Shown here piece after piece: positions 1,237 to 32,293 of a DNA stretch of 41,976 nucleotides. A program made the position numbers and the translations under genes. The notes under the pieces were generated by a model, which was not told the origin of the DNA, did not search any database, and worked only from the letters and a program-made list of their open reading frames with translations. Position 1 is the stretch's first letter. The number at the start of each line of letters is the position of its first letter. This DNA is from Picosynechococcus sp. PCC 7117 (lineage in GTDB: Bacteria > Cyanobacteriota > Cyanobacteriia > Cyanobacteriales > MRBY01): positions 1 through 41,976 of the forward strand of contig NZ_CP016481.1 of the NCBI RefSeq assembly GCF_001693275.1, written 5' to 3'.

Positions 1237-1916
1237 GCCTCCTCGGTCTAATCCTGCAGCTTTTTAATTGTCTGAATCTATAGCTGACATCAGATTAATG
1301 TTGAGACTCTCTAAAAGATAGGGAAAATGCGATCGCCCCTGTTTCTCTTGTTACGGCCTCAAGCTTAAATCGCCTCACATTCCTGGTTTAAGTTCAGGGG
1401 ACAGGAAATAAGGAGTCGTCCGCGCAAAGCACCGATGACGGTTATCTTTGATTATTGAAAAAGCCGCATTCTGCCGCTTTACCTGTCCCCATGGAGGTTA
1501 TTGCCTACCTTTTGCCCACTGCCCACCAAGTCTTATCCTGCTGTCCCAGACAGTTCTGTTCCCAAAGGTTACTTGCCGCCAACGTGACTGTTACTTTCTA
1601 AACCCCAATCCCCTACTGATGGGTATAGGCGGAGCAACAGGATAGAAGTGAGGATGCCGCACTATTGCGGCGTAACTACGCTTCCTTAGCCGCGAAAAGG
1701 CATTCTAGCAACACCAGTCCGCCGGAGTCCGTTAGCCCGTATTTTCTTACGTTGGCCTCCTACGTCGGCGATCTTCGGCTGTCGGGTAGATTTATACGTT
1801 GGGGCCTAAGCAAGCTACGTCCCTATCCCGGCGTTTGTGGCGTGCTTTTTATTTTTCTTGGGCGGCACGTCGCTAGTAGAGAGAGGGGTGGGTTAGAGGG
1901 GGTAGGGGCGCGCGCA
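1237..1916. other. Non-coding region with several hairpins
   Basis: No convincing gene is visible here. Visible structure: an inverted pair GGGGACAGG (about 1398) and CCTGTCCCC (about 1483) some 75 nt apart; a second pair TATCCTG/CAGGATA around 1535 and 1638; and a tight hairpin GCCGCA-CTAT-TGCGGC at 1656-1671. A HIP1 octamer lies near 1329. The paired elements would be compatible with a structured untranslated or regulatory RNA, but no known family is recognised. Confidence 0.4.
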
Positions 1917-2024
1917 GCGTGTCTTTTTGTCCTCTTGTGGGTTGTTCGGTTGTGGTCTGGCCTGGGGGCTGTTGGTTTGTTCCGTTGCCCCCTGTCGCTC
2001 GTGGGGCTTTCGCCCCTGCGGGTT
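1917..2024 (+). other. Adenine-free segment ending in a GGGG-TTTCG-CCCC type hairpin
   Basis: From about 1917 to 2024 the plus strand contains no adenine (roughly 105 nt of only G, T and C). It ends with the hairpin GGGGCTTTCGCCCC at 2003-2016, followed by TGCGGGTTTAG. This is a short version of the large A-depleted block at 21121-21791, whose units end in the same type of hairpin. It converges on the 3' end of the minus-strand SLOG gene. The frames across it lack stops only because every stop codon contains A, so no protein is called. Confidence 0.6.
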
Positions 2025-2443
2025 TAGATCAGAGTTAGCTGTCTTTGCTTTGCCCAGCTCGGTGCTTGGCTACCGTCGAGAGAGTAGATTGTCACCTTTA
2101 GCCCTTTCTTTACGGCATAGGCGATAGTTCCCCAGGTGCCGCTACCGTGACCGCTGAAGGGTTTTGTAGGGGTGCAGCTTTCCGGGCATGGTTTGTTAGG
2201 GAAGGCGATTAATACTGTGGCGTCATTTATCATCCGCTGACTTCTAGCGGCGAACTGCCATCTTTCCCGGCCTTCTACATGGTAGATGGTGAGGTCTGTT
2301 TTTCCTGCGTAGTGTTCTGCTACTAGGGCGTCTAGTCCTTTGGCATCTCCCACCCCGACCGCTGGAGGGTTTGCGGGGAGTAGGTTTAGCACTTGTTTGG
2401 TTTCTTGTGTAGTTAATTGTCTTGGGCCGCTGAATGCGAGCAT
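2024..2443 (-). CDS. SLOG/DprA-like nucleotide-binding domain protein
   Basis: A 139-residue single-domain protein with the hallmarks of the SLOG (SMF/DprA-LOG) Rossmann-like superfamily: LAFSGPRQL at 2-10, GVGDAKGLDALV at 30-41, a middle segment with DATVLIAFP (74-82), and a C-terminal phosphate-binding loop GSGTWGTIAYAVKKGL at 100-115. SLOG proteins bind nucleotides or nucleotide-derived ligands; members include DprA, LOG cytokinin enzymes and prokaryotic immunity sensors. No effector domain is fused here. It is divergent from the 2651 operon, and the intergenic region carries palindromic operators (2482-2497 and 2551-2562), so both directions are probably co-regulated. The substrate is unknown. 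Confidence 0.75.
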   Translation of the reverse strand: MLAFSGPRQLTTQETKQVLNLLPANPPAVGVGDAKGLDALVAEHYAGKTDLTIYHVEGRERWQFAARSQRMINDATVLIAFPNKPCPESCTPTKPFSGHGSGTWGTIAYAVKKGLKVTIYSLDGSQAPSWAKQRQLTLI

Positions 2444-20204: not shown

Positions 20205-20685
20205 CCCCGATTTACAACTCATTACCCAGGCTAAAAATGTTGAAGCATCTCGTTTAGAGAACCTTGAAGCCTCTGCTGACTACCAACGCGATCGCCGCTG
20301 GACAACTTGGTTAAATCCTAATCCCATCGGTATTCTGCAAAATCTTTTTGGGGGTGGCGATCGCCAACGGGCCGAGTTACAAATCCGCACTACCGAAGCC
20401 CAGGCCGATGCCAGTCGCTTCAATCTAGTCGAAGCCGATATCAGAACTGAGATGAGAAGACAGGCGATCGCCGACCAAATCCAAGCCGACCTTGATCAAC
20501 TGGCCCAACTTGAAACCGAACTCACCGCCGAGCAAAAACGCCTTCAACTTTTTGAAATCTACTTCCAGCGGGGTCAGGGCAGCCCTGCCGAATATCTCAA
20601 CTTTCAAAATCGTTTGGCCCAGCTAACCGCAGAAAAAGAGAAATTAACCATGACGATTAACGACATCTGCGAAGATAAACAGTAG
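20050..20685 (+). CDS. Exported coiled-coil protein, overlapping the adaptor gene
   Basis: A 211-residue protein with a convincing signal peptide (MWKVALPKSLPSVALTLVLC, then AALGGW...VKAQ, likely cleavage after about residue 32). The mature part is helical: ENDPDLQLITQAKNVEASRL, a Gly-rich hinge near NPIGILQNLFGGGDRQRAEL, and coiled-coil helices to the end, compatible with an outer-membrane-factor (TolC-like) fragment or adaptor partner. The frame is open back to 19879, but ATG 20050 is chosen because the signal peptide begins there. It overlaps the HlyD-like gene by 155 nt in a different frame. It is too short for a full TolC, and an intrinsic terminator follows. Confidence 0.65.
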   Translation: MWKVALPKSLPSVALTLVLCAALGGWSRVKAQSTPKSPYDLATLTQCQIENDPDLQLITQAKNVEASRLENLEASADYQRDRRWTTWLNPNPIGILQNLFGGGDRQRAELQIRTTEAQADASRFNLVEADIRTEMRRQAIADQIQADLDQLAQLETELTAEQKRLQLFEIYFQRGQGSPAEYLNFQNRLAQLTAEKEKLTMTINDICEDKQ

Positions 20686-20705
20686 AACAAAAACACTGAC
20701 AGACT

Positions 20706-20744
20706 TCCTTGGGTATCCAACAGCCCAAGGATTTTTCATTTTTT
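20706..20744 (+). terminator. Rho-independent terminator
   Basis: TCCTTGGG (20706-20713) pairs perfectly with CCCAAGGA (20724-20731) around a 10-nt loop, followed by TTTTTCATTTTTT. It ends the adaptor/exported-protein transcript. Confidence 0.85.
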
Positions 20745-21120
20745 CCCTAGTCCTTAAAATATCGTGCGCAAAGCGCGGTTTATAAACGCATCGCTCTACG
20801 CCGCGAAGGGCACGTGCCCCCAAGGGGGCTTTATATTGGCAAACTTGCATATTCCCGAAAGGTTCACTGCCTCGCCACAGGTTATTGAGGCCACACAGGT
20901 TTTCTATTTTCCCCGCCAAATACCCGCTACAAAGCCTATACCGAGCTGCGGCGCTGATATTGATTTCGGTCTGGCCTAATGCGCGACTTCCAGAGGCACC
21001 GTTACTGGTAATTTGGCGAGCTTACTTTCCGCGCGGCCAGGGTGCATTTTCCTCGCGCACTCCGGGCTTTCCGCTGGTCGTTACTGAATTGCCACAGGTT
21101 ACTGAGCGGGGCAGAAAAAC
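20745..21120. other. Non-coding, GC-palindrome-rich segment
   Basis: No gene is supported. Visible structure: TGCGCAAAGCGC (about 20764), hairpin GCCCCC-AA-GGGGGC at 20816-20829 followed by TTTATATT, and a 16-bp direct repeat GCCACAGGTTATTGAG (20874-20889) / GCCACAGGTTACTGAG (21091-21106). A related CGTTACTGAATT precedes the second copy. It leads directly into the adenine-depleted block and may be part of the same element. Confidence 0.45.
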
Positions 21121-21443
21121 CCTTGCGGTGTGGCCGCGTTGTTGTTTTTTTGGGGGTTTTGCCCGTGTTTTTGCTCTGTTGGTTTCTCGTTTCTGTCTTG
21201 TTTCTCGTTGTCTTTGGACCTCGGCGAGCTCAGTCGAGCCGTCGTTCCGGTTCTGCTGGCTCGGCTCCGGTTCCCCCAGCGGTGTCTCGTCCTGCTGCTG
21301 CTCCTGCTTGTTCCTTGGCGGTGCGTGCTGCTGTCGTTCCGTCGTCCTGCTGCTTGCTGCTTTCCCGGTCTGGTCGTCCTCTCTCCGGTGGTGCTCTTGC
21401 TGCCCGGGTCGGTCGGCTCCGTCGCTCTGGTGTTCTTGTCTAG
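21121..21443 (+). other. Adenine-depleted unit 1
   Basis: The plus strand contains only a handful of adenines over this span (none in 21121-21180 or 21301-21420). One frame stays open until TAG at 21441-21443 and would encode Arg/Ala/Ser/Pro/Val/Leu-rich sequence such as RPLSGGALAARVGRLRRSGV. All frames are open because stop codons need A, so coding status cannot be judged from length. The TAG is followed within 10 nt by a GGGGG/CCCCC terminator, as in unit 2, which argues for a transcribed plus-strand unit. It could be an A-poor gene or a U/G/C-only RNA. Confidence 0.6.
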
Positions 21444-21452
21444 TTTTTTCCT

Positions 21453-21476
21453 GGGGGTTCGCCCCCTTTTCTTTTT
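21453..21476 (+). terminator. GGGGG-TTCG-CCCCC terminator of unit 1
   Basis: GGGGG-TTCG-CCCCC followed by TTTTCTTTTT: a very stable tetraloop hairpin with a T-tract on the plus strand. It implies plus-strand transcription through the A-depleted unit 1. Confidence 0.75.
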
Positions 21477-21503
21477 CGTCCTTTCGTTGCTGAGGTTTTT
21501 GCC

Positions 21504-21791
21504 GTGATTCGTCGTTCTTTTTCTGTCGGTCGTTCTGGTTCCCGTGCTCTGGTTCCGTTCCGCCGTGTTTCTGGCCTTGCCTTGTCCTGCGGCTGTGTCG
21601 GTTGGTCGGTGCGCGGCTCGCTCCGGGCTTTCTCTGGCTCGGTGGTCTGGGCTGAGTTCGCTTCCCCTGGTGCTGCGGCTCGGTTCGGGTTCCGGGCTTC
21701 CCGCTTGGTGGGTGTTCCGGTCTGGGTGCGTCCCGGGGTCTGCTCTGTCTCTGGGCTGGTCTGGGTCGTTTCGGTTCCTGTTTCTCGCTAG
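21504..21791 (+). other. Adenine-depleted unit 2
   Basis: A GTG at 21504 opens a 95-codon frame ending in TAG (21789-21791), in the same frame as the TAG-terminated frame of unit 1. The product would be VIRRSFSVGRSGSRALVPFR... and so on: rich in Val, Ser, Gly, Arg, Ala and Trp, and almost free of Lys, Asn, Asp, Thr and Gln because their codons contain A. From 21541 to 21780 there is a single adenine in 240 nt. A near-identical terminator follows. The GSRAL string and small-residue composition recall A-poor SLOG-type genes I associate with cyanobacteria, but the domain is not intact enough to call. Confidence 0.55.
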
Positions 21792-21801
21792 TTGTTCTGC
21801 T

Positions 21802-21824
21802 GGGGGCTTCGCCCCCTTTTTTTT
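21802..21824 (+). terminator. GGGGG-CTTCG-CCCCC terminator of unit 2
   Basis: GGGGG-CTTCG-CCCCC directly followed by eight or more T: a textbook intrinsic terminator on the plus strand. It has the same design as 21453-21476, and its hairpin resembles 2003-2016. Confidence 0.85.
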
Positions 21825-21841
21825 GGCAGTCTCCCTAGATA

Positions 21842-22735
21842 ATGGAGAGAGTCAATATTACAGCATCCATGAGAGACATCAAGTGGGCGATCGCCTTAGC
21901 CAAATCAATCATCAAGCATCCCATCCGAGCTATCCCTTTATTGATTGGCATCGGCCTAGTCTTTTTTGGCGCACAAAATTACGAACCCCCCACGGAACCC
22001 AATGAGGCGCAAAACTCTACTCCAACTCAATCCCAACCGACAGACTCCCAGGGTGCAGCTCCCCCCCAAGCGGCGATTGCCAGCAATAACCCTTGCCCCA
22101 TCCATCTCCCCAATGGTTTACCCACCGGAACCCCAGCCACTAATGATTTAATTGTGCGGGGTATTTATTGCCTCAGCTCCAACGACGATACTAAGTTCGC
22201 TGATTGGGTCGCCTTCCGTTTAGACCAAGCCACTATTACAGGCAGTTCAGAGCAAGACCGGGAGTGGGAAGCTGATCCGGCGATCGCCCGCGACCAGACT
22301 TTAGAACCCGAAGACTTCCGGGGAGCTTATAAATGGGGCAACTATGACCGAGGCCACCTAGCTCCTCTCGCTTCATTTCGAGGCAAGAACTGGCAACAAG
22401 TGAACTATCTCAGCAATATCGTCCCCCAGAAAGCTAGCCTGAACCGGGGCGCTTGGAAAGAACTCGAAGAATATGAACGAGATCTCGTCAAGCAATACGG
22501 TGAGGTTTATGTGATTGTGGGAACCGCCTACGACAACCAACCCCTCAGCCTGATCAATGCTGACGAACCGAACGATATTCCTGATTACTTCTGGCGTATC
22601 ATCCAATACAACGGCAAGACTGAAGTCTATCTCTTTCCCCAGGACACTCCATTCGGCACGGACTTTCGCCTGGGTAAAACCACTGTCTATGAAGTAGAGC
22701 AGTGGAGTGGCCTGAATTTTGGTTTACAAAAATGA
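21842..22735 (+). CDS. NucA-like DNA/RNA non-specific endonuclease, membrane anchored
   Basis: A 297-residue protein. Residues about 27-44 (IRAIPLLIGIGLVFFGA) form an N-terminal membrane anchor, followed by a Pro/Thr/Gln-rich linker (45-82). The catalytic domain is the beta-beta-alpha-metal NUC family: YDRGHLAPLASF with the DRGH motif at 169-172 (H172 the general base), then YLSNIVPQKASLNRGAW with N192 and N201 in metal/phosphate positions. Anabaena NucA is the family reference. Being tethered outside the cytoplasmic membrane, it would degrade DNA in the periplasm, perhaps for uptake, nutrient release or entry exclusion. It follows directly after the A-depleted block. Confidence 0.9.
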   Translation: MERVNITASMRDIKWAIALAKSIIKHPIRAIPLLIGIGLVFFGAQNYEPPTEPNEAQNSTPTQSQPTDSQGAAPPQAAIASNNPCPIHLPNGLPTGTPATNDLIVRGIYCLSSNDDTKFADWVAFRLDQATITGSSEQDREWEADPAIARDQTLEPEDFRGAYKWGNYDRGHLAPLASFRGKNWQQVNYLSNIVPQKASLNRGAWKELEEYERDLVKQYGEVYVIVGTAYDNQPLSLINADEPNDIPDYFWRIIQYNGKTEVYLFPQDTPFGTDFRLGKTTVYEVEQWSGLNFGLQK

Positions 22736-23390: not shown

Positions 23391-26300
23391 GTGTTAAAGC
23401 CAAATGTTCTGATCAAAAGTTCTTTGTACCCAGAAGTAGTCAGGGTCATTAGTTCTAGTCCGATGGGGTCTTCTCTGAAGGTACAAGCTGTTGGCTTAGA
23501 GACGAATCGTTTTTATGACCAGATTTTAAATGCGGCACAGATTGAACAATTGGCTTTTATTAAGCAAGCAGAGAGCTTTGATGCAGATCCGCGTCGTTTT
23601 CGTTTAGCTGTTGATGCCCTCCGCTGGGGATTGGCGTATGAATATGATCCCTATTTTTCGCTGGCGATCGCCCGTGTTGATCCGCTTCCTCACCAGTTAG
23701 AAGCGGTCTATGACTATTTTTTGAAGTCTGGCAGAATTCGGTTTCTATTGGCTGATGACCCTGGTGCGGGAAAAACGATCATGGCGGGTCTGCTACTCAA
23801 GGAATTGAAGATTAGAGGTCTAGCCCAAAGGGTTCTCATCGTTGCTCCTGCCAACTTAACATTCCAGTGGCAGCGAGAGATGAAGGATAAGTTTAGGGAA
23901 GATTTTGAAGTTCTTAGGGGCGATACCTTGAGGGCAAACTATGGTCAAAATCCATGGCAAGAAAAAAATCAAGTTGTGACTTCTGTATCTTGGGTTTCAA
24001 GGATTGAAGATGCACGAGAAAGTTTGCTTAGGGCTAATTGGGATTTAATTATTGTCGATGAAGCCCATAAAATGAGTGCTTATAGTGAAAAGAAAAAGAC
24101 TTTAGCGTACAAGCTTGGGGAAGAATTATCTAAATTAACTGACCATTACTTATTGATGACAGCGACTCCCCATAAGGGAGATCCAGATAATTTTTGTTTA
24201 TTTTTGGAGTTATTAGATAAGGATGTTTATGGAGATGTAAAAAGTCTGCATAAAGCAATGGAAGATAATGCTGCGCCATTTTATCTCCGTCGAACAAAAG
24301 AATCCCTTGTGACTTTTCCCGATCCTGAAACTGGTCAGGTAACTAAATTATTTACAAAGCGGGAAGTAAAAACGATTGATTTCACAATTGATGATGAAGA
24401 AGCAGATTTTTACCATGAACTAACTCGGTATGTAGAAGACCAGTCGATTAAGGCTTCTCAAGATGATTCTGTTCGAGGTCGAGCGTTAGGCTTCACAATG
24501 GCGATGTTGCAGAGGCGTTTTGCTTCAAGTATGTTTGCTGTACGACGTAGCCTAGAGCGGATGAAAGATAGACGTGAAAAGATTTTGGAAGATCCAGAGG
24601 CTTATCGTCAACAAAAAATTAATAGTAAATTACCTGATGATTTTGATGATTTAACAGAGCAAGAACAGCAAAATATCCTGACTAATTTGGAGAATGTTGT
24701 TGCTTCTATTGACCCACAAGATTTACGTGATGAAATTGTGGAATTGACTAAGCTGATTAGAATGGCTTTGGAGCTTGAAACGGGTGAAGTAGAGTCTAAG
24801 TTAGTCAAGCTTAAGGAGGTTATCAATAAATACAGGTTATTTGATGATCCAAAAATGCGGCTACTGATTTTCACCGAGCATAAGGATACATTAGATTACT
24901 TGGTTCTAAAGCTTAGGGATTGGGGCTTATCAGTCACGCAAATTCATGGGGGCATGAAGATCGGCGATCGCAATACTCCCAATACCCGAATTTTTGCGGA
25001 ACGAGAATTTCGGGAGTCCTGTCAAGTGCTGATTGCGACGGAAGCGGCAGGGGAGGGTATTAATCTCCAGTTCTGCTGGCTAATGGTTAATTATGATATT
25101 CCATGGAATCCAGTCAGATTAGAGCAAAGGATGGGGCGGATTCATCGCTATGGTCAAGAAAAAGATTGCCTAATTCTCAATTTTGTGTCAACAAATACTC
25201 GTGAAGGTCGTGTTCTCAGTAAGTTATTTGAACGGATCAGCGCAATTGAATCTGATTTAGATCCAGAACAAACAGGTAAAGTTTTCAACGTTTTAGGTGA
25301 TTTATTCCCATCCAATCATTTGGAACGAATGGTGCGGGATATGTATTCTCGAAATTTAACTGAGGATGTGATCAAGGCTCGAATTGTTGAGCAGGTTGAT
25401 TTACAGCATTTTCAGGAAATCACGAATTCTACCCTCGAAGGCTTAGCTAAGCGGGAACTGGATTTATCGAAGCTACTGGATAAAACTGTTGATGCAAAGG
25501 AGAAAAAGCTAACGCCGGAGAGTATTGAAGATTTTTTTGTGGATGCAGCGACGGAAGCGAGTTTGACTCCGAAGCTGGTGCGTAAACATAGCCACGAATA
25601 CCGAGTTGGGCGTTTACCTAGAACTCTGATGCAAATTGGCGATCGCCTCGAAAGAGATTATGGCAAGCTCGGTAGAGAGTACAAAAATATTGTTTTTGAT
25701 AAAAATCTGCTGAAAGAAGATGCAACTTTGGAATGGGTGACACCGGGGCATCCATTATTTGAAGCGGTCAGGTTCTCGGTATTAGAGAGTACCCAAGCGG
25801 ATTTGAAACGAGGAGCAATCTTTTATGACCTCAATCGTCATGAGCCTTCTTGTCTTGATGTATTCGTGGCAGAAGTCCGGGATGGACGCAGTAATGTACT
25901 CCATAAAAAATTATTTGTGGTGGAGACCCGTCTTTCTGGTGAGATGTCAGTAAGGCAGCCAGAGGTTTTCCTTGATTTGGCGATCGCCCCTCTAGAGACC
26001 ACCCCACCGGATGCTAGTTGTTTGCCGTCGTTGGCATCGGTGGAGACCCATCTCTATGAGGAAGCTTTGGAGCCATTTTTAAATGAGGTTCAAGAAGAGC
26101 GTCGGCATACCATCGAGAAGATTCAGGCTCACATGAAAATTAGTCTGAATACCATTATTGATAAGGTTCAATGTCAGTTTATTGAATTGATGGATCAGAA
26201 AGCCTCTGGGTCGGAGGAGCAAGGTTTAGATGGTCGGATTAAGCAATTTGAGGATCGTCTGGATGATCTCAATGACCGTCTGGAAACTCGCACGGAACAA

Positions 26301-26798
26301 CTCAATCAGGAGATTAATTGTGTGATCGGCGGGATTCATCATTATGGTCGGGCATGGGTCTTACCTCACCCAGAGCGGGATTCCCCCACCATGGCGATGA
26401 TGGTTAGTGATGCTGAAATCGAACGGATTGCGGTAGAAGCTGTGATCGCCCATGAGGAAGCCCAAGGTTATCAAGTAGAGAGTGTGGAGTCCCAGAATCG
26501 AGGGTTCGACTTAATCTCTCGCAAACCGCACCCCGAAGACCCCTATACTGCTACTGATGTGCGTTTTATTGAGGTCAAAGGTCGGGCAGGTGTGGGGGCT
26601 GTGGCCTTAAGTCGGAATGAGTACCGCACGGCAAAACGATTAAAGCGGGATTATTGGTTATATGTGGTTTTCAACTGTGCAACCCAACCGGAAGTTTATC
26701 CGATTCGTGATCCGCGTACTCTGGGTTGGGAAGCGATCATGAGTGTTGAACACTACCAAGTCAACTCTGATTTGATTATGGAAGCAAAGGGAGAATAA
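23391..26798 (+). CDS. SNF2-type helicase with C-terminal DUF3883
   Basis: A 1135-residue SF2 helicase beginning at GTG 23391. PHQLEAVYDYF (about 100-110), the Walker A loop DDPGAGKT (122-129), VDEAH (222-226), LLMTATPHKGDPDN (motif III region), and the C-terminal helicase motifs IFTEHKDTLDYL, IATEAAGEGINLQF and RMGRIHRYGQ are all present. The last about 120 residues form a DUF3883-type PD-(D/E)XK-like domain (GYQVESVESQNRGFDLIS, then FIEVKGRAG). This architecture is that of DrmD/defence-associated helicases. It opens a plus-strand array with an ATPase, a DUF1156 methyltransferase and DUF499, and the next gene begins 3 nt after its stop. Confidence 0.9.
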   Translation: MLKPNVLIKSSLYPEVVRVISSSPMGSSLKVQAVGLETNRFYDQILNAAQIEQLAFIKQAESFDADPRRFRLAVDALRWGLAYEYDPYFSLAIARVDPLPHQLEAVYDYFLKSGRIRFLLADDPGAGKTIMAGLLLKELKIRGLAQRVLIVAPANLTFQWQREMKDKFREDFEVLRGDTLRANYGQNPWQEKNQVVTSVSWVSRIEDARESLLRANWDLIIVDEAHKMSAYSEKKKTLAYKLGEELSKLTDHYLLMTATPHKGDPDNFCLFLELLDKDVYGDVKSLHKAMEDNAAPFYLRRTKESLVTFPDPETGQVTKLFTKREVKTIDFTIDDEEADFYHELTRYVEDQSIKASQDDSVRGRALGFTMAMLQRRFASSMFAVRRSLERMKDRREKILEDPEAYRQQKINSKLPDDFDDLTEQEQQNILTNLENVVASIDPQDLRDEIVELTKLIRMALELETGEVESKLVKLKEVINKYRLFDDPKMRLLIFTEHKDTLDYLVLKLRDWGLSVTQIHGGMKIGDRNTPNTRIFAEREFRESCQVLIATEAAGEGINLQFCWLMVNYDIPWNPVRLEQRMGRIHRYGQEKDCLILNFVSTNTREGRVLSKLFERISAIESDLDPEQTGKVFNVLGDLFPSNHLERMVRDMYSRNLTEDVIKARIVEQVDLQHFQEITNSTLEGLAKRELDLSKLLDKTVDAKEKKLTPESIEDFFVDAATEASLTPKLVRKHSHEYRVGRLPRTLMQIGDRLERDYGKLGREYKNIVFDKNLLKEDATLEWVTPGHPLFEAVRFSVLESTQADLKRGAIFYDLNRHEPSCLDVFVAEVRDGRSNVLHKKLFVVETRLSGEMSVRQPEVFLDLAIAPLETTPPDASCLPSLASVETHLYEEALEPFLNEVQEERRHTIEKIQAHMKISLNTIIDKVQCQFIELMDQKASGSEEQGLDGRIKQFEDRLDDLNDRLETRTEQLNQEINCVIGGIHHYGRAWVLPHPERDSPTMAMMVSDAEIERIAVEAVIAHEEAQGYQVESVESQNRGFDLISRKPHPEDPYTATDVRFIEVKGRAGVGAVALSRNEYRTAKRLKRDYWLYVVFNCATQPEVYPIRDPRTLGWEAIMSVEHYQVNSDLIMEAKGE

Positions 26799-26801
26799 AT
26801 T

Positions 26802-28784
26802 GTGATCAAGATTAGCAAAATTCAGATTAAAAATTTTAAGTCTTTTCAGGATGTGACTGTAAATCTTGATCCAGATTTTAATGTTTTTACTGGGGTTAAC
26901 AATGCGGGAAAAACAAATCTACTTGAGGCGATCGCCCTTTGGCATGAGTGTTTTAATGTTTTGATTTATCAAGCTAGTCGTTCTGCTTCTGGTAAATGGC
27001 AAGCGGGAGATTATGTTTTTAAAAATAATCAATACATACTCTATACGGATATTAAAACAGTCCGTAGTTCTAGTATTAATGACTTATTTTTTCAATGTGA
27101 CACAACTCAAAAAATAGAGCTAATTTTAGCCTTTGAATTTAAGCAAGATAATTCAGAAGTACGCCATACATTTTCTATTGGTTTCTCTATTGCCAATTCC
27201 CACGGAAACAGCTATAAGCTAGAGTTTTTAAACCGCCAAAACTTTGATTTTGTCCAGTTTAATCAAATATTTCGTAACTTCCCTAAAGTGATCGCCTGTT
27301 CTTTTGCTTCTCCTGTTGCTGCGATTAGAGCTGATGAAAGATTTTTGACCACTCCCCAAGTGCGTGAGTCGATTCAAAAACGAGAGTCAGTGGAAGTTAT
27401 CCGTAATCGTCTTTATACGCTTCATAGTGATCAGGCTGACCCTCAACTATATGAAAGATTTAAGCGTGATCTGTCCTATATTCTTTTTGATAGTTCCAGC
27501 ACGGAAATCAACTTCTTCACTTCGAGCAATTTCCGAAATGATATTAAGGTAATTATTAATTACAAAATTGATAATCGCGATGTGGAAAAAGATATTTCCT
27601 TATTGGGCAGTGGGACATTACAGATTATTGTAATTCTATTAAATTTATATTCACCTGGGGAACAGAATGATCTAAATTTAACGCTTTTTGATGAACCAGA
27701 TAGCCATATTCACCGTGATATTCAAAAACGACTAATCAACACACTCTTAAGGTTTTCTGAGACGACCCAAATTTTCTTGACAACTCATAATGAAAGTTTG
27801 ATTCGGCAAGTGCCATTACATCAGTTATTTCATCTGGAAAATAGACCCCAGTATGAATATAATCCTTTATCTCAACAGGAACTTTTTGTCGACTCCCACT
27901 TTAAAGGTATTTATCCTTCAGCTTTAAATCCTGTGATTAGTTCTTTGGGCAATAGTAACGGCTTGGATTTTGTTAATGCGATTGAAGCGGATAAGATTAT
28001 TTTTGTTGAAGGTCAGGATGATGCTAAGGCAATTTACACTCTCCTGCAAAAGAATACGATTGGTGTAAATACAAAAAAATATTCTTTCTGGGTGTTGGGT
28101 GGAGTCACTAGCCTTTTTAAGGATTTACCAAGTTATAAAAAAATCTTTAAATTAATTAAAAACCAACAAACCCTCTGGCAAAAATCCGCGTTAATTTTCG
28201 ATAGGGATTTCCTGAGTGATGACCACAAAAATCAAATCCTAAATAATCTCAATAATAGGTTTGAGCTACCAACTTATATTCCTAACTCTTATACGTTTGA
28301 ATCTACTTTGCTGACAGATTTTGATAAGTTTGGTAAGTTGCTATCTTTGTGGTTGAGTGATCAACAGGTTTCAATAGACTCAATTTCTCTCACTCAAGCT
28401 TTACAGCAAGCATATCTTAATCACATGACTCCTAAGCTACAGCAATTTTTCAATGATGATGGGGCGATAGAACAAGTGGTTTATCGATGTGCCAATGCTG
28501 TGCGAGATAAACTTAAGAGTGATGAGATGTTAGGGAGAAATGATAAATCAATCCCAGAAAATAATGTTCAGTTATCGACTGTTTATCGTAACTATTTTAA
28601 TCGCATCTTGACGACACAAGAGTTTTATAAATACGCTAAGAAAGATGATGTTCAAGCAATTATTAATCAAGTAATTAGCGCTCAAAATATACAGTTCGAT
28701 ATTGAGCAAGATTTTATTGCACTACTTAGTCTTGTGGATCGCTCTACTTGGTTTGATGAGTGGAATTTTTTAACTCATCTTTAA
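26802..28784 (+). CDS. OLD-like ATPase with TOPRIM-like region
   Basis: A 660-residue AAA15/OLD family protein starting at GTG. The N-terminus MIKISKIQIKNFKSFQDVTV with Walker A GVNNAGKTN (31-39) is the SMC-like ATPase lobe. LTLFDEPDSHIHRDIQK (around 300-316) provides the signature and Walker B, followed by IFLTTHNESLIRQV. Around residue 405, IIFVEGQDDAKAIYTLL and later ALIFDRDFLSD match a TOPRIM-type nuclease fold. OLD proteins cleave DNA in phage exclusion. It is coupled to the helicase (3-nt gap) and precedes the DUF1156 gene, so it is probably an effector of the same system. A minor doubt is whether the TOPRIM acidic set is complete. Confidence 0.85.
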   Translation: MIKISKIQIKNFKSFQDVTVNLDPDFNVFTGVNNAGKTNLLEAIALWHECFNVLIYQASRSASGKWQAGDYVFKNNQYILYTDIKTVRSSSINDLFFQCDTTQKIELILAFEFKQDNSEVRHTFSIGFSIANSHGNSYKLEFLNRQNFDFVQFNQIFRNFPKVIACSFASPVAAIRADERFLTTPQVRESIQKRESVEVIRNRLYTLHSDQADPQLYERFKRDLSYILFDSSSTEINFFTSSNFRNDIKVIINYKIDNRDVEKDISLLGSGTLQIIVILLNLYSPGEQNDLNLTLFDEPDSHIHRDIQKRLINTLLRFSETTQIFLTTHNESLIRQVPLHQLFHLENRPQYEYNPLSQQELFVDSHFKGIYPSALNPVISSLGNSNGLDFVNAIEADKIIFVEGQDDAKAIYTLLQKNTIGVNTKKYSFWVLGGVTSLFKDLPSYKKIFKLIKNQQTLWQKSALIFDRDFLSDDHKNQILNNLNNRFELPTYIPNSYTFESTLLTDFDKFGKLLSLWLSDQQVSIDSISLTQALQQAYLNHMTPKLQQFFNDDGAIEQVVYRCANAVRDKLKSDEMLGRNDKSIPENNVQLSTVYRNYFNRILTTQEFYKYAKKDDVQAIINQVISAQNIQFDIEQDFIALLSLVDRSTWFDEWNFLTHL

Positions 28785-28803
28785 CTATTAAAAATCTCTA
28801 ACG

Positions 28804-28932
28804 ATGCCGACCTACCCAAAACGCCTCATTGAAGTTGACCTGCCGATCAAGAAAATTTCTGCCCATGCGCGGCGGGAAAAATCGATTCGTCATGGTCATA
28901 TTTCTACGCTCCATATTTGGTGGGCGCGGTGA
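28804..28932 (+). pseudogene. Original N-terminus of the DUF1156 methyltransferase, cut by a frameshift
   Basis: ATG 28804 starts [20 protein letters not shown] and runs to [11 protein letters not shown], the standard start of DUF1156 proteins, then meets TGA at 28930-28932. The family normally continues [16 protein letters not shown]; here VTCAALW resumes immediately, one frame away. About 25 nt, encoding the RPLAACRA stretch, therefore appear deleted between WWAR and VTC. The N-terminal 42 codons are thus separated from the rest of the gene. Confidence 0.8.
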
Positions 28933-31805
28933 CCTGTGCGGCGTTATGGATTGACCCGGTTGATCCTCTCTGTCCTGATGAGTTTCGGGAGCGGGCTGCG
29001 GCACTTATCACTGCTTTTGCGAAGAAGGCGGCAACGGATAAGGATCTGGCGAATGGTTGTTCTACGGAGACTTGGGAAAAGTGGCAGGTCTTAGCGAAGC
29101 CGGAAAATGCTTTGGATATGGCGAAACCGGAGCATCGGAATGTTTTGCGTTATCGGCTACTGGATTTTATTGCGGATTTTGCGAACTGGGACAATAGCAC
29201 TCAGCCAGATTATCTGGAAACGAGTCGGGCTTTAACGGTGGCTGCCCATGAGGCTTTGGGCGGTGTACCGGGAACTCGTCCGCTGGTGGTTGATCCCTTT
29301 GCTGGTGGTGGGGCGATCCCGTTGGAGGCTCTCAGGGTTGGGGCGGATGCCTTTGCGTCGGATCTGAATCCGGTGGCGGTTCTCCTCAATAAGGTGGTGT
29401 TGGAATATATCCCGAAGTATGGGCAAACTCTGGCGGATGAGGTGCGGAAGTGGGGGCAGTGGATTAAGGAAGAGGCGGAAAAGGAGTTAGGGGAGTTTTA
29501 CCCGCAGGATGAGGACGGTTCGACTCCCATTGCCTATCTTTGGGCGAGGACGATTATTTCTGAGGCTCCGGATGATGGGTCGGGGATTCCGGTAGAAGTG
29601 CCGTTAATGCGATCGCTCTGGTTAGGGAAAAAGCCAAAAAGATTAAGAGCATTGCGGTGGGTACGAGATAATCAAGGGCAGGTACTAACGGAAACGGTGG
29701 AGATTACTTACGCGGATGGGATAACGCGGACGGTGCGGCGACCTTTATTAGAGATTTTTGAACCGCAGAAGGCGAAGGAAGTGGAAGATGGCACGGTAAC
29801 AAGGGGTTCGGCGACTTGTCCGGTGACGGGCTTTACTACTCCAGTGGCTTCGGTGAGATCCCAGCTTAAACCGAGGAAAGGTGGGGCGGATGATGCGCGG
29901 TTGTTTTGTGTGGTGACAACGAAAGCGAGTGAGAAAGGTCGGTTTTATCGGTTGCCAAATGAGCAGGATTTAGCTGCTATTAAACGGGCAAAGGTGGAGT
30001 TGGAAAAGCGAAAAAAAGAACATCAAGGAGAGTTAAGTTTAGTTCCTGAAGAGCCTTTACCACCGCAAGGAGCGTTAGGCTTTCGTGTTCAACTTTATGG
30101 CATGGAAGAATGGGGTGATTTATTCACTTTCCGGCAATCTTTAGCGTTAACAACTTTGGTGAGATTGGTGCAAGAAGTTGGGGAAAAGTTAGCTAGTGAA
30201 GATGATCAAGGTTTGGCGATCGCTGTTCAAAGTTGTTTAAGTTTAGCAATTGATAGACAAGCCAATACTTTAACCGCTTTATCTAGGTGGCATACTGGAC
30301 GTGAAAATATTGAAGGTTTATTTGCTAGGCAAGCTATTCCGATGGTTTGGGATATTGCTGAAGCTAACTCCTTTTCTGGATCAACTGGTGGTTTAGATGG
30401 TGCAATCAATTGGGTTTTAGATGTATGTCAGGCTAATTTAATACTTGATATTGTTGCTCAAACTCAAAAAATTAATGCTGCTTCCCATTCCTTGCCAGAT
30501 GATTTTGCTCAAGCATTTATTTCTGACCCTCCCTACTATGATGCTGTTCCTTATGCAGATTTGTCAGACTTTTTTTATGTTTGGCTAAAAAGAACTTTAA
30601 ACAAAACCTTAACTGCCAATTTTCAGACATTGCTAACCCCCAAAGATGATGAATGTATTGTTGATGAAGTTAAAGGTAAAGATAAAGCCTATTTTGAAAA
30701 AACAATGGGTCAAGCAATGGCAGAAGGTTATCGTTACCTGTCCCCGACTGGTATTGGCGTAATTGTTTTTGCCCATAAGTCTACATCCGGTTGGGAAGCC
30801 CAATTAAATGCCATGATCGAAGCGGGTTGGACAATCACCGGATCCTGGCCGATTGACACGGAAATGGGTTCCCGTTTACGAGCAATGAACTCTGCTGCTT
30901 TAGCCTCATCGGTTCATCTGGTTTGTCGTCCCCGCATCAGTAACGAAATCGGCGATTGGCGAGAAATCCTCGGCGAACTCCCCCAACGAATCCATGAATG
31001 GATGCCCCGTTTAGCCAGTGAAGGAGTCGTCGGAGCCGATGCCATCTTTGCCTGTTTGGGGCCAGCCCTCGAAATCTATTCCCGCTATGCCAGCGTCGAA
31101 CGAGCCAACGGCGAAGAAGTCACCCTCAGAGAATACCTAGAATATGTGTGGGCGACCGTTTCCAAAGAAGCCCTCAGCATGATTTTCGACAATGCCACTG
31201 CCACCGACCTCGAAGAAGATGCCCGCCTAACCGCCATGTGGCTCTGGACACTCACCACCGACCCCACCACCGAAACCGAAACCGATGACGACGGCAAAGT
31301 GATCAAATCTTCCGGCTACACCCTCGAATATGATGCCGCTCGGAAAATTGCCCAGGGCTTAGGCGCATACCTCGAAAAACTCACCAGTCTGGTTCAAATC
31401 AGTGGTAGTAATGCCACCCTACTGCCTGTTTCCAACCGAGCTACTTATCTCTTTGGCAAAGAAGGCATCCAAGACCCACTCCCCAGACGATCCAGATCTA
31501 GGAGTAAACAACTCAGCCTCGATTTTGGCGAAGTGATCGAACAAGTCACAGAACAACAGGGAACCACAGAAATTACCGTTACCCAAGTCGGCAAGACCGT
31601 TCTCGACCGCATCCACCAATCCATGCTGCTCTTTGCCGCCGGACGTAGCGAAGCCCTCAAACGATTTATCGTTGATGACGGCATTGGACAAGACCAAAAA
31701 TTCTGGACATTAGCCCAGTCATTATCAGCCCTCTATCCCACTGGCACAGACGAAAAACGCTGGGTAGATGGCGTACTCGCAAAGAAAAAAGGCTTAGGTT
31801 TTTAA
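28917..31805 (+). CDS. DUF1156 family DNA methyltransferase, main body after the frameshift
   Basis: A 962-codon frame (nominal TTG start at 28917; GTG at 28920 is also in frame) holding the bulk of a DUF1156 adenine/cytosine-N methyltransferase. The SAM-binding motif [20 protein letters not shown] lies about 125-145 residues in, and the catalytic [19 protein letters not shown] about 540-560. A long variable region separates them. Such enzymes accompany DUF499 and SNF2 helicase genes and are thought to modify host DNA. The native start at 28804 is out of frame because of the small deletion, and the lost segment is the most conserved part of DUF1156, so activity is doubtful. It ends 46 nt before the MNT gene. 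Confidence 0.8.
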
Positions 31806-31850
31806 TGTCTCCGCAACATTCCAAGACGCAACACAACCCCCAATAAAACC

Positions 31851-32192
31851 ATGAATCCAACCCTCACCGCCCCTAATCCGAACCTCTCCCACATCCTCCA
31901 ACAACTCCGCGACCACTTCCAAAAAAACTACCAGGACAACCTCGCCAAAGTCATTCTCTTCGGTTCCCAAGCCCGTGGCGATGCTGCCCCTGATTCCGAT
32001 ATTGATATTTTGGTACTGCTCAAAAATCAATTTGATGCTTATCAAGAAAACAAAAAAAATAGCCAATTCATTGCCGATCTCTGTCTTCAATATGACACCG
32101 TAATCAGTTGCTTTCTGATGAACCTCGACACCTGGCAAAATACCAATAATGCCTTTACCCGTAACGTGCGCCAGGAAGGGGTGAGCCTGTGA
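31851..32192 (+). CDS. MNT-type minimal nucleotidyltransferase
   Basis: A 113-residue protein with the polymerase-beta-like nucleotidyltransferase core: VILFGSQARGDAAPDSDIDILV (residues 34-55), with G38-S39 and the metal aspartates D50 and D52. The C-terminal RNVRQEGVSL is the usual ending of cyanobacterial MNT antitoxins. These normally AMPylate and neutralise a HEPN toxin encoded just downstream. Here no HEPN gene follows: only a 14-codon remnant-like frame (GTGAGGAAA...) and a short gap before DUF499. It may act on the defence array instead, or be an orphan. FSQARG-type active-site residues appear intact. Confidence 0.85.
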   Translation: MNPTLTAPNPNLSHILQQLRDHFQKNYQDNLAKVILFGSQARGDAAPDSDIDILVLLKNQFDAYQENKKNSQFIADLCLQYDTVISCFLMNLDTWQNTNNAFTRNVRQEGVSL

Positions 32193-32293
32193 GGAAAAAA
32201 CAAAATCTGATTCTCATCCTCGAAAATCTTTAACAAATCACTTAAACACAAAACTTTTAACTCCTCTTCACCGTTCTAAAAAAATCTCGGATT

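What the first reader, a model, noticed from the sequence alone, without database searches (positions are those of the whole stretch)
21121..21791. 660-nt block almost without adenine on one strand
From 21121 to 21780 I count 9 adenines in 660 nt of the plus strand, while T, G and C are all abundant. Neighbouring DNA is normal. This is not low GC, not a simple repeat and not explained by codon bias of a recognisable gene. It needs a mechanism: selection for an A-free RNA, avoidance of an A-specific nuclease or modifier, or biased mutagenesis of one strand. I recall A-poor genes encoding SLOG-like proteins in other cyanobacteria, which would make this a member of an undescribed class, but that memory is unverified.
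Basis: partly seen in the sequence, partly recalled or inferred. Interest (0 to 1): 0.85.

Follow-up and report, generated by a model that had tools for sequence, protein, structure and literature searches.

The report
Adenine-free genes on mobile bacterial DNA
The odd block is two small protein genes written almost without the letter A; they belong to a family of such genes found in cyanobacteria and other bacteria, often on plasmids, which suggests that something in the cell punishes A in their messages.

Summary
Confirmed: 9 A in 660 nt. The tract (21120-21827) holds two short genes, ORF1 (21165-21443) and ORF2 (21504-21791), each ending in TAG plus a hairpin and T-run. Sister plasmids show purifying selection (dN/dS 0.10-0.22): C, G and T interchange at silent sites, A almost never appears. 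ORF2 is related to the N-terminal domain of SLOG/DprA-like proteins; ORF1 lies beside such genes elsewhere. The purge covers the segment from stop to terminator and ends there. It follows the sense strand on either DNA strand. Relatives of ORF2 and SLOG with normal A exist. Best reading: selection for messages without adenosine, most likely to escape an adenosine-directed attack on RNA. The agent is unknown, expression is untested, and A-specific mutation is not excluded. Picosynechococcus SLOG genes break the rule: their sense strand is poor in T, not A.

The parts
21120..21827 (+). whole A-purged tract
21120..21164 (+). A-free 5' leader ending in TTTGGGGGTTTTGCCC directly before the start codon; a similar leader precedes A-poor genes in two other genomes of the order (G095, G107)
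   Evidence: 0 A of 45; a motif search limited to places followed by A-poor DNA printed 11 places in 9 loci, 8 of them distinct: five Picosynechococcus plasmids, one in G095, two in G107
21165..21443 (+). ORF1, 92 aa, GTG start, TAG stop; hydrophobic N-terminus, conserved C-terminus CSLAVRAAVVPSSCC...GRLRRSGVLV
   Evidence: annotated as hypothetical protein in all four sister plasmids, with this start in 3 of 4; dN/dS 0.10-0.22; alignment A2
21218..21241 (.). 24-nt palindromic insertion, in frame (+8 aa), source of 4 of the 9 A; related copies after the ORF1 stop in PCC 7002 and PCC 8807, on contig C4 and on the chromosome
21453..21474 (+). A-free terminator-like hairpin and T-run after ORF1
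21492..21495 (+). Shine-Dalgarno-like GAGG before ORF2, holding the only A of the 60 nt between the genes
21504..21791 (+). ORF2, 95 aa, GTG start, TAG stop; 3 A in 288 nt (codon 2 ATT, one GAG, TAG)
   Evidence: annotated in 3 of 4 sister plasmids; AlphaFold2 mean pLDDT 74.9
21802..21824 (+). A-free terminator-like hairpin and T-run after ORF2
2024..2443 (-). SLOG-type gene of the same plasmid (P0001), A not depleted, T unusually low on its sense strand
1883..2055 (+). second A-poor stretch, converging on the SLOG gene, with a hairpin; possible third A-poor small gene or remnant

Best explanation
The block is a two-gene piece of a three-family module (ORF1, ORF2 domain, SLOG/DprA-like protein), often on plasmids, whose messages have been purged of adenosine. 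Shown: it is coding; A is excluded at silent sites, in the leader, between the genes and in the terminator; A survives mainly where the amino acid or the stop codon leaves no choice; the purge follows the sense strand and stops at the terminator; relatives of ORF2 and SLOG with normal A exist. Likely: the depleted state has changed more than once in the family. Inferred: selection acts on the RNA and each adenosine lowers the yield of intact message, most likely because these genes are expressed while an adenosine-directed activity attacks RNA (an endoribonuclease of a host defence or toxin, or an RNA-editing or depurinating enzyme). The proteins, one DprA-like with a clamp-binding-like tail, would then be made when other messages fail.
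For: Coding under constraint: ORF1 against its C4 paralogue differs at 48 of 77.5 silent and 21 of 174.5 replacement sites; dN/dS 0.10-0.22 for ORF1 and 0.11-0.17 for ORF2. A at 3 of 112 four-fold sites of ORF1+ORF2 in five strains, each in one strain only, against 30 of 92 in the neighbouring endonuclease. Family (recount): 61 of 78 distinct SLOG domains have under 7% A, 75 of 78 have less A than their flanks. In the 26 most depleted genes four-fold A is 16 of 3483, against 20.3% in 141 unfiltered control ORFs of the same loci; of 115 A-bearing codons 31 are Asp, 26 stop and 19 Gln; stops are TAG 20, TGA 6, TAA 0. In the 41 of 78 loci that met the cuts A is 0-1.3% over the bases 150 to 45 before the end of the stop codon, 7-10% in the first 30 nt after it (control 27.3%), 17% in the next 15, and about 25-30% beyond; the tract ends a median 33 nt after the stop. 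Sense-linked: A-poor SLOG on + and A-poor ORF2-like gene on - of one contig; A-poor ORF1 copies on both strands of one 3.7-Mb contig. Gene-specific: normal-A ORF2 homologues near A-poor SLOG genes. Setting: ArdA/antirestriction, Rad52 or Gp157 genes are annotated in the fetched stretch for 8 of 13 annotated SLOG-bearing plasmid records, 2 of the 4 with A-poor SLOG. Real proteins: pLDDT 95.3 for the product of an A-poor SLOG gene.
Against: No expression data and no named agent. The genes are not fully A-free (Asp, stop), so an enzyme that cuts at any A would still find a few sites. In several loci (L017, L112, L031) the A-poor tract also reaches upstream of the likely SLOG promoter with no gene identified there. 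The Picosynechococcus SLOG genes have 30-32% A and low T on the sense strand. In Synechocystis PCC 6803, which carries an A-poor SLOG gene on pSYSX, the type III CRISPR RNase Csx1 is specific for cytosine, not adenosine (PMC9676260, abstract and passages). Selection and A-specific mutation are not cleanly separated: the deepening deficit of A from singletons (3 of 41 alleles) to shared alleles (0 of 70) has a Fisher p of only about 0.05 (counts; test, run with 71).
Confidence: 0.4

Rival explanations
1. Transcription-linked, A-specific mutation. A process that turns A on the exposed non-template strand into any other base erodes A over transcribed genes; protein selection keeps only the A it cannot lose.
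For: Same footprint (sense strand, to the terminator) and the same pattern of surviving A; T, G and C are all common at the silent sites; a broad range of A content, 0.2-28% among SLOG genes outside Picosynechococcus, looks like different stages.
Against: Nearby genes keep A: an ORF2 homologue that begins about 60 nt after an A-poor SLOG gene has 19% A, two others 35-40% (a fourth has 9.7%). Silent divergence is not raised: dS from the window 0.44-0.57 in ORF1, 0.09-0.50 in ORF2, 0.33-0.82 in the endonuclease. No A-specific mutator is known to me that gives all three products on single genes; no template/variable repeat pair was found in 20600-22000.
Confidence: 0.22
2. Messages that can be made without ATP. 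During an attack that drains or deaminates ATP, RNA polymerase can still complete an A-free transcript.
For: The purge covers leader, coding part and terminator; SLOG-type proteins are linked to nucleotide-centred conflicts (recalled).
Against: Translation itself needs ATP for tRNA charging; some likely start-site regions keep A (L112, L027, read by eye); Asp and stop codons still need ATP. Untested.
Confidence: 0.12
3. DNA-level rule: one plasmid strand is kept free of A because it is single-stranded at some stage (transfer, rolling-circle copying), or to stay free of adenine-methylation restriction sites.
For: Plasmid genes beside ArdA; the Picosynechococcus SLOG genes, which point away from the ArdA operon, are T-poor instead of A-poor; the Moorena relative also has low T at four-fold sites, 12.3%; on both plasmids of the strain the A-poor strand is the same for both A-poor stretches.
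Against: A-poor genes on both strands of one contig and of one 3.7-Mb contig; the depletion goes gene by gene, and a site-free gene cannot save a cut plasmid; the Fischerella relative, which also points away from its antirestriction gene, has 23% T.
Confidence: 0.12
4. An A-free structured or regulatory RNA rather than protein genes.
For: Strong hairpins; no Pfam hit above cut-off for ORF1 and ORF2; A-free DNA is open in all three forward frames by default.
Against: dN/dS 0.10-0.22; the same ORF1 stop is annotated in four sister plasmids; predicted folds (pLDDT 95.3 for SLOG, 74.9 for ORF2); no Rfam match.
Confidence: 0.04

Closest known systems
SLOG superfamily, DprA/Smf branch (PF02481) and its relatives SLOG cluster4 and YAcAr
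   Same: 13 of 46 aligned relatives match PF02481 weakly (best E 1.1e-4), 2 match SLOG cluster4 and 2 YAcAr, at E up to 0.1; DprA is the best solved-structure sequence hit (3uqz, E 0.015); best fold hit is ShosA (8zva, prob 0.91, E 0.098), a DprA-family protein (recalled)
   Different: ORF1 and ORF2 of the window are not SLOG domains; ORF2 is related to the domain in front of SLOG. The one A-poor member shown singly and the five A-poor ones had no Pfam hit.
Messages without ACA that escape MazF (single-protein production; PMC9102682, PMC4775720 and others seen as a search listing)
   Same: a message spared because it lacks the letters that an RNase needs
   Different: engineered or chance loss of one triplet; here a whole nucleotide is nearly removed from natural genes, at the cost of half the amino-acid alphabet (98.6% of residues from ten amino acids against 61.8% in six relatives with at least 20% A)
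Adenosine-preferring RNases: HigB (PMC9098466, passages), PfuCsx1 and TonCsm6 (cited in PMC9676260, passages)
   Same: would spare A-free RNA
   Different: none has been linked to these genes, and the Csx1 of one host is cytosine-specific
Diversity-generating retroelements (PMC3240598, search listing with start of abstract)
   Same: A-specific change to any base
   Different: need a reverse transcriptase and a template/variable repeat pair; no such pair found around the block

Membership tests
SLOG/DprA superfamily (for the related SLOG genes, not for ORF1/ORF2) | profile match above Pfam's curated cut-off for PF02481 | tested here: not met
   L036 scores 20.7 bits against a cut-off of 29.6, the other five proteins of that scan have no hit; P0001 has no hit; 13 of 46 members match at E<=0.1, bit scores not shown
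SLOG/DprA superfamily (for the related SLOG genes, not for ORF1/ORF2) | Rossmann-like alpha/beta fold with GxR and GxD loops | tested here: inconclusive
   confident model, pLDDT 95.3; invariant G23, R25, G52, D54 in 46 rows; Foldseek best hit a DprA-family protein but E 0.098
SLOG/DprA superfamily (for the related SLOG genes, not for ORF1/ORF2) | binding of ssDNA or a nucleotide ligand | not testable with these tools
   needs biochemistry
A-poor SLOG module (class described here) | ORF2 of the window related to the domain in front of A-poor SLOG proteins | tested here: met
   profile of ORF2 and its standalone relatives scores 28.7-36.9 on 4 targets, best of 500 shuffles 7.7, 0 of 500 reaching in each case
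A-poor SLOG module (class described here) | ORF1, ORF2 and SLOG together and A-poor in one locus | tested here: met
   Xenococcus contig L112; Chloroflexaceae contig L098 has two ORF1 homologues before SLOG. In the window itself not met: ORF1+ORF2 lie about 19 kb from a SLOG gene that is not A-poor
Diversity-generating retroelement | template and variable repeats differing at A | tested here: not met
   only short chance-like repeats in 20600-22000
Diversity-generating retroelement | reverse transcriptase nearby | tested here: inconclusive
   annotated within 3 kb of the block on pAQ5 only, 1 of 4 sister plasmids; no family search was run for it in the window
Known structured RNA family | Rfam match at gathering score | tested here: not met
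   0 matches in the window

The most novel reading that the evidence does not exclude
Natural three-letter genes: mobile elements of several bacterial phyla carry protein genes whose messages have been selected to hold no adenosine except where the protein cannot do without it, so that they are still made or survive when the host's defence or a toxin destroys adenosine in RNA or the ATP supply. They would point to a widespread adenosine-directed attack on RNA not yet recognised.
Probability: 0.45. Interest if true: 0.95.

Novelty: categorically new. Interest (0 to 1): 0.85.

Why it matters
A bias this strong is unheard of to me: a single nucleotide nearly absent from whole genes, with the protein rebuilt from ten amino acids and still predicted to fold. 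It offers a direct, testable handle on an unknown pressure on RNA, and natural examples of proteins with a reduced alphabet. The model strains Picosynechococcus PCC 7002 (pAQ5) and Synechocystis PCC 6803 (pSYSX) carry members, so it can be tested now.

Tried and rejected
UV-proof template strand (no T to form dimers): set aside because the class also occurs in a bin named Candidatus Desulfobulbus rimicarensis (L107; dark vent habitat recalled) and spares neighbouring genes. Replication-strand bias: rejected by A-poor genes on both strands of one contig and of one 3.7-Mb contig. Type III CRISPR Csx1 as the agent in PCC 6803: against it, that enzyme is cytosine-specific. Codon or tRNA avoidance alone: does not explain A-poor leaders and terminators. 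Self-protection of the SLOG enzyme from its own activity: weakened by a relative with the same loops and normal A (L036). Pure A-to-G editing: T and C are common as well. The upstream tracts of L094, L104, L105, L116, L117, L095, L100 and L103 were first taken as non-coding; they match the ORF2 profile. Open frames were not taken as evidence, since A-free DNA has no stop codons. Fold search with ORF2 gave no convincing match. A tree of 79 SLOG rows needs 7 changes of the depleted state, 2 of them forced by well-supported branches; amino-acid make-up differs so much that its deep forks are unsafe, and two of its rows (L091, L112) were wrong stretches. The literature searches (listings only) showed no paper on such genes; most subscription journals and bioRxiv are not held. 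The genome-contig scan used motifs from A-poor members, so 61 of 78 is not a prevalence; the less biased figure is 10 A-depleted SLOG genes in 386 sampled cyanobacterial genomes, itself found with an A-poor query.

Corrections made on checking: searches used a wrong, minor stretch for three ORFs (in L091, L112 and L053), and the control ORFs had been filtered to at least 12% A. One search recounts with the best domain and unfiltered controls; the report uses its numbers (before: 59 of 78 under 7%, 15 of 3332, control 22.6%, 40 loci, median end 34). The reading and the odds did not change. The 78 rows are one SLOG ORF per locus with score over 100, from 86 loci, 8 duplicates removed; three weaker ORF hits (one in L108, two in L115) were dropped.

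Full report
Observation. The block is real: 9 A in 660 nt, where 189 are expected. Its limits are 21120 and 21827; the base make-up changes within a few nucleotides on either side. It lies on a 42-kb contig (G000:C5) of a strain that I take to be Picosynechococcus: all seven plasmid records with a DNA match are of that genus, and a contig of another genome of the strain's genus (G002:C2) has the length of the PCC 7003 plasmid. The same block is on plasmids of PCC 73109, PCC 7003, PCC 7002 (pAQ5) and PCC 8807, and half of it, ORF1, is on contig C4 of this strain at 68% DNA identity.

What it is. It is two genes. ORF1 (21165-21443) and ORF2 (21504-21791) each start with GTG, end with TAG and are followed by a hairpin of the type GGGGG(C)TTCGCCCCC and a T-run. 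In PCC 73109, PCC 7003 and PCC 7002 ORF1 holds one A in 258 nt, the A of its stop codon. Because A-free DNA has no stop codons, open frames prove nothing here; the proof of coding is the substitution pattern. Against the C4 paralogue, ORF1 differs at 48 of 77.5 silent and 21 of 174.5 replacement sites; dN/dS in the printed pairs is 0.10-0.22 for ORF1, 0.11-0.17 for ORF2 and 0.07-0.13 for the neighbouring endonuclease gene. The PCC 8807 copy of ORF2 has a 14-nt deletion near its start and was compared from after it. At 112 four-fold sites of the two genes in five strains A occurs at 3, each time in one strain only; in the endonuclease it occurs at 30 of 92.

The wider class. A search of 386 cyanobacterial genomes with ORF2 found matches in 6: the strain itself, one of its genus, relatives at 47-50% identity in three other genomes of the same order (G019, G095, G107), all A-poor, and one weak match with stop codons inside (G023). 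Near the match in G107 lies an A-poor gene of over 900 nt for a SLOG-like protein. With its SLOG part as query, 14 of 386 genomes matched; 10 hold an A-depleted gene, three are not A-poor (G234, G000, G002) and one (G007) is a weak match with stops. Scans of a species collection and of viral contigs added 53 and 16 loci; record names include cyanobacteria, Roseithermus (a complete chromosome), Kapaibacterium, Contendobacter, a Desulfobulbus and a Chloroflexaceae bin; many are metagenome bins that may be wrongly assigned. Of 78 distinct SLOG domains, 61 have under 7% A, 45 under 3% and 26 under 1.2%; 11 have 7-20% and 6 at least 20%; 75 of 78 have less A than their flanks, the three exceptions being Picosynechococcus genes. 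No match was found in the phage collection with one SLOG query at E 1e-4.

How the A is excluded. In the 26 most depleted genes 16 of 3483 four-fold third positions are A, against 20.3% in 141 control ORFs of the same loci. Of 115 codons that hold A, 31 are Asp, 26 stops and 19 Gln; the stops are TAG 20, TGA 6, TAA 0. Ten amino acids with A-free codons make up 98.6% of residues, against 61.8% in the six relatives with at least 20% A. Of the 31 Asp codons 26 follow a G-x, as in the invariant G-x-D motif. Of the 19 Gln codons 14 fall in the last eight codons, where a QLSLF-like tail is present in 37 of 78 proteins in a strict form and 50 of 78 in a loose form; it resembles the sliding-clamp-binding motif (recalled, not tested). 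The model of one A-poor SLOG product is confident (pLDDT 95.3); its closest solved fold is ShosA, with a weak E-value.

Footprint. 41 of the 78 loci met the cuts (A up to 3%, flank A at least 18%, at least 300 nt after the stop; 33 failed the first cut, 4 the second). In them A stays at 0-1.3% from 150 to 45 nt before the end of the stop codon, rises to 6-9% in the last 30 nt (Gln and stop codons), is 7-10% in the first 30 nt after the stop, 17% in the next 15, and 25-30% beyond; the tract ends a median 33 nt after the stop (interquartile range 15-45), near the terminator. Control genes have 27.3% A in the first 30 nt after their stops. In the window the leader has 0 A of 45, the gap between the genes 1 of 60 and the terminator segment 0 of 36. 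So the rule is not about codons alone. It follows the sense strand: on contig L074 an A-poor SLOG gene lies on one strand and an A-poor ORF2-like gene on the other, and the 3.7-Mb contig of G019 has A-poor ORF1 copies on both strands. It is gene-specific: near A-poor SLOG genes in L032 and L035 an ORF2 homologue has 35-40% A, in L049 one that starts about 60 nt downstream has 19%, in L065 one has 9.7%.

Module. ORF1, ORF2 and SLOG occur together, all A-poor, on a Xenococcus contig. ORF1 homologues stand before an A-poor SLOG gene in a Chloroflexaceae contig, and ORF2 homologues stand before it in Contendobacter- and Kapaibacterium-type contigs. ORF2 is related to the N-terminal domain of long SLOG proteins (0 of 500 shuffles reach the score, four targets). 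The 20 printed ORF1 hits have at most 2.3% A, whereas the 40 printed ORF2 hits range from 0 to 34% (four hits of each were re-fetches and not printed). ArdA/antirestriction, Rad52 or Gp157 genes are annotated near SLOG in 8 of 13 annotated plasmid stretches, four of them Picosynechococcus.

Mechanism. The footprint, the silent-site pattern and the survival of A mainly at forced positions point to pressure against adenosine in the transcript. I favour escape from an adenosine-directed attack on RNA (0.4), with transcription-linked A-specific mutation (0.22) and ATP-free transcription (0.12) as the main rivals. What is shown: coding, purge, footprint, strand rule. Likely: repeated change of the depleted state (with its warnings). 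Inferred: that selection, not mutation, does it, and what the agent is.

Against my reading. The Picosynechococcus SLOG genes have normal A and low T on the sense strand; the two of this strain are the two T-poorest of 68 ORFs of at least 110 aa taken from C3, C4, C5 and 20 kb of C6, and the copies in four sister strains have 14-16% T. Relatives in Fischerella, Nostoc and Calothrix have 23-30% T, that of Moorena 20%. I cannot explain this. Upstream of some SLOG promoters the tract is A-poor without an identified gene. Csx1 of PCC 6803 cuts at C.

Noticed in passing
window 2024-2443 (-); L040; L126-L129: SLOG genes of Picosynechococcus have T-poor sense strands: the two of this strain are the lowest of 68 ORFs examined (11.0 and 15.7% T, mean 24.8); sister strains show 14-16% T.
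   Followed up: partly
window 21218-21241; L007 near 1501; L003 and L004 after the ORF1 stop; L022: A short palindromic element (CGGCGAGCTCAGTCGAG-type) found at different places on plasmids and chromosome; here it is inserted in frame in ORF1.
   Followed up: partly
window 1875-1905: A purine-rich run before the second A-poor stretch; similar runs precede A-poor SLOG loci L017 and L033 (seen by eye).
   Followed up: no
L053 276-1220 and 1366-1905: Two SLOG genes in tandem on one viral contig, one A-poor, the other with 19% A.
   Followed up: no
window 20950-21119: About 170 nt upstream of ORF1 are conserved between five strains and partly in the C4 paralogue, with normal A: probable promoter or regulatory region.
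   Followed up: no
L126 959-1129 (PCC 7002 pAQ5): PLSDB labels a 171-nt plasmid gene as a beta-lactamase (ACT-82); at that length it looks like a spurious label.
   Followed up: no
window 23391-35263: Helicase-like, ATPase-like, DNA methyltransferase-like and large ATPase-like genes in a row: looks like an anti-phage defence island (from reading the translations only).
   Followed up: no
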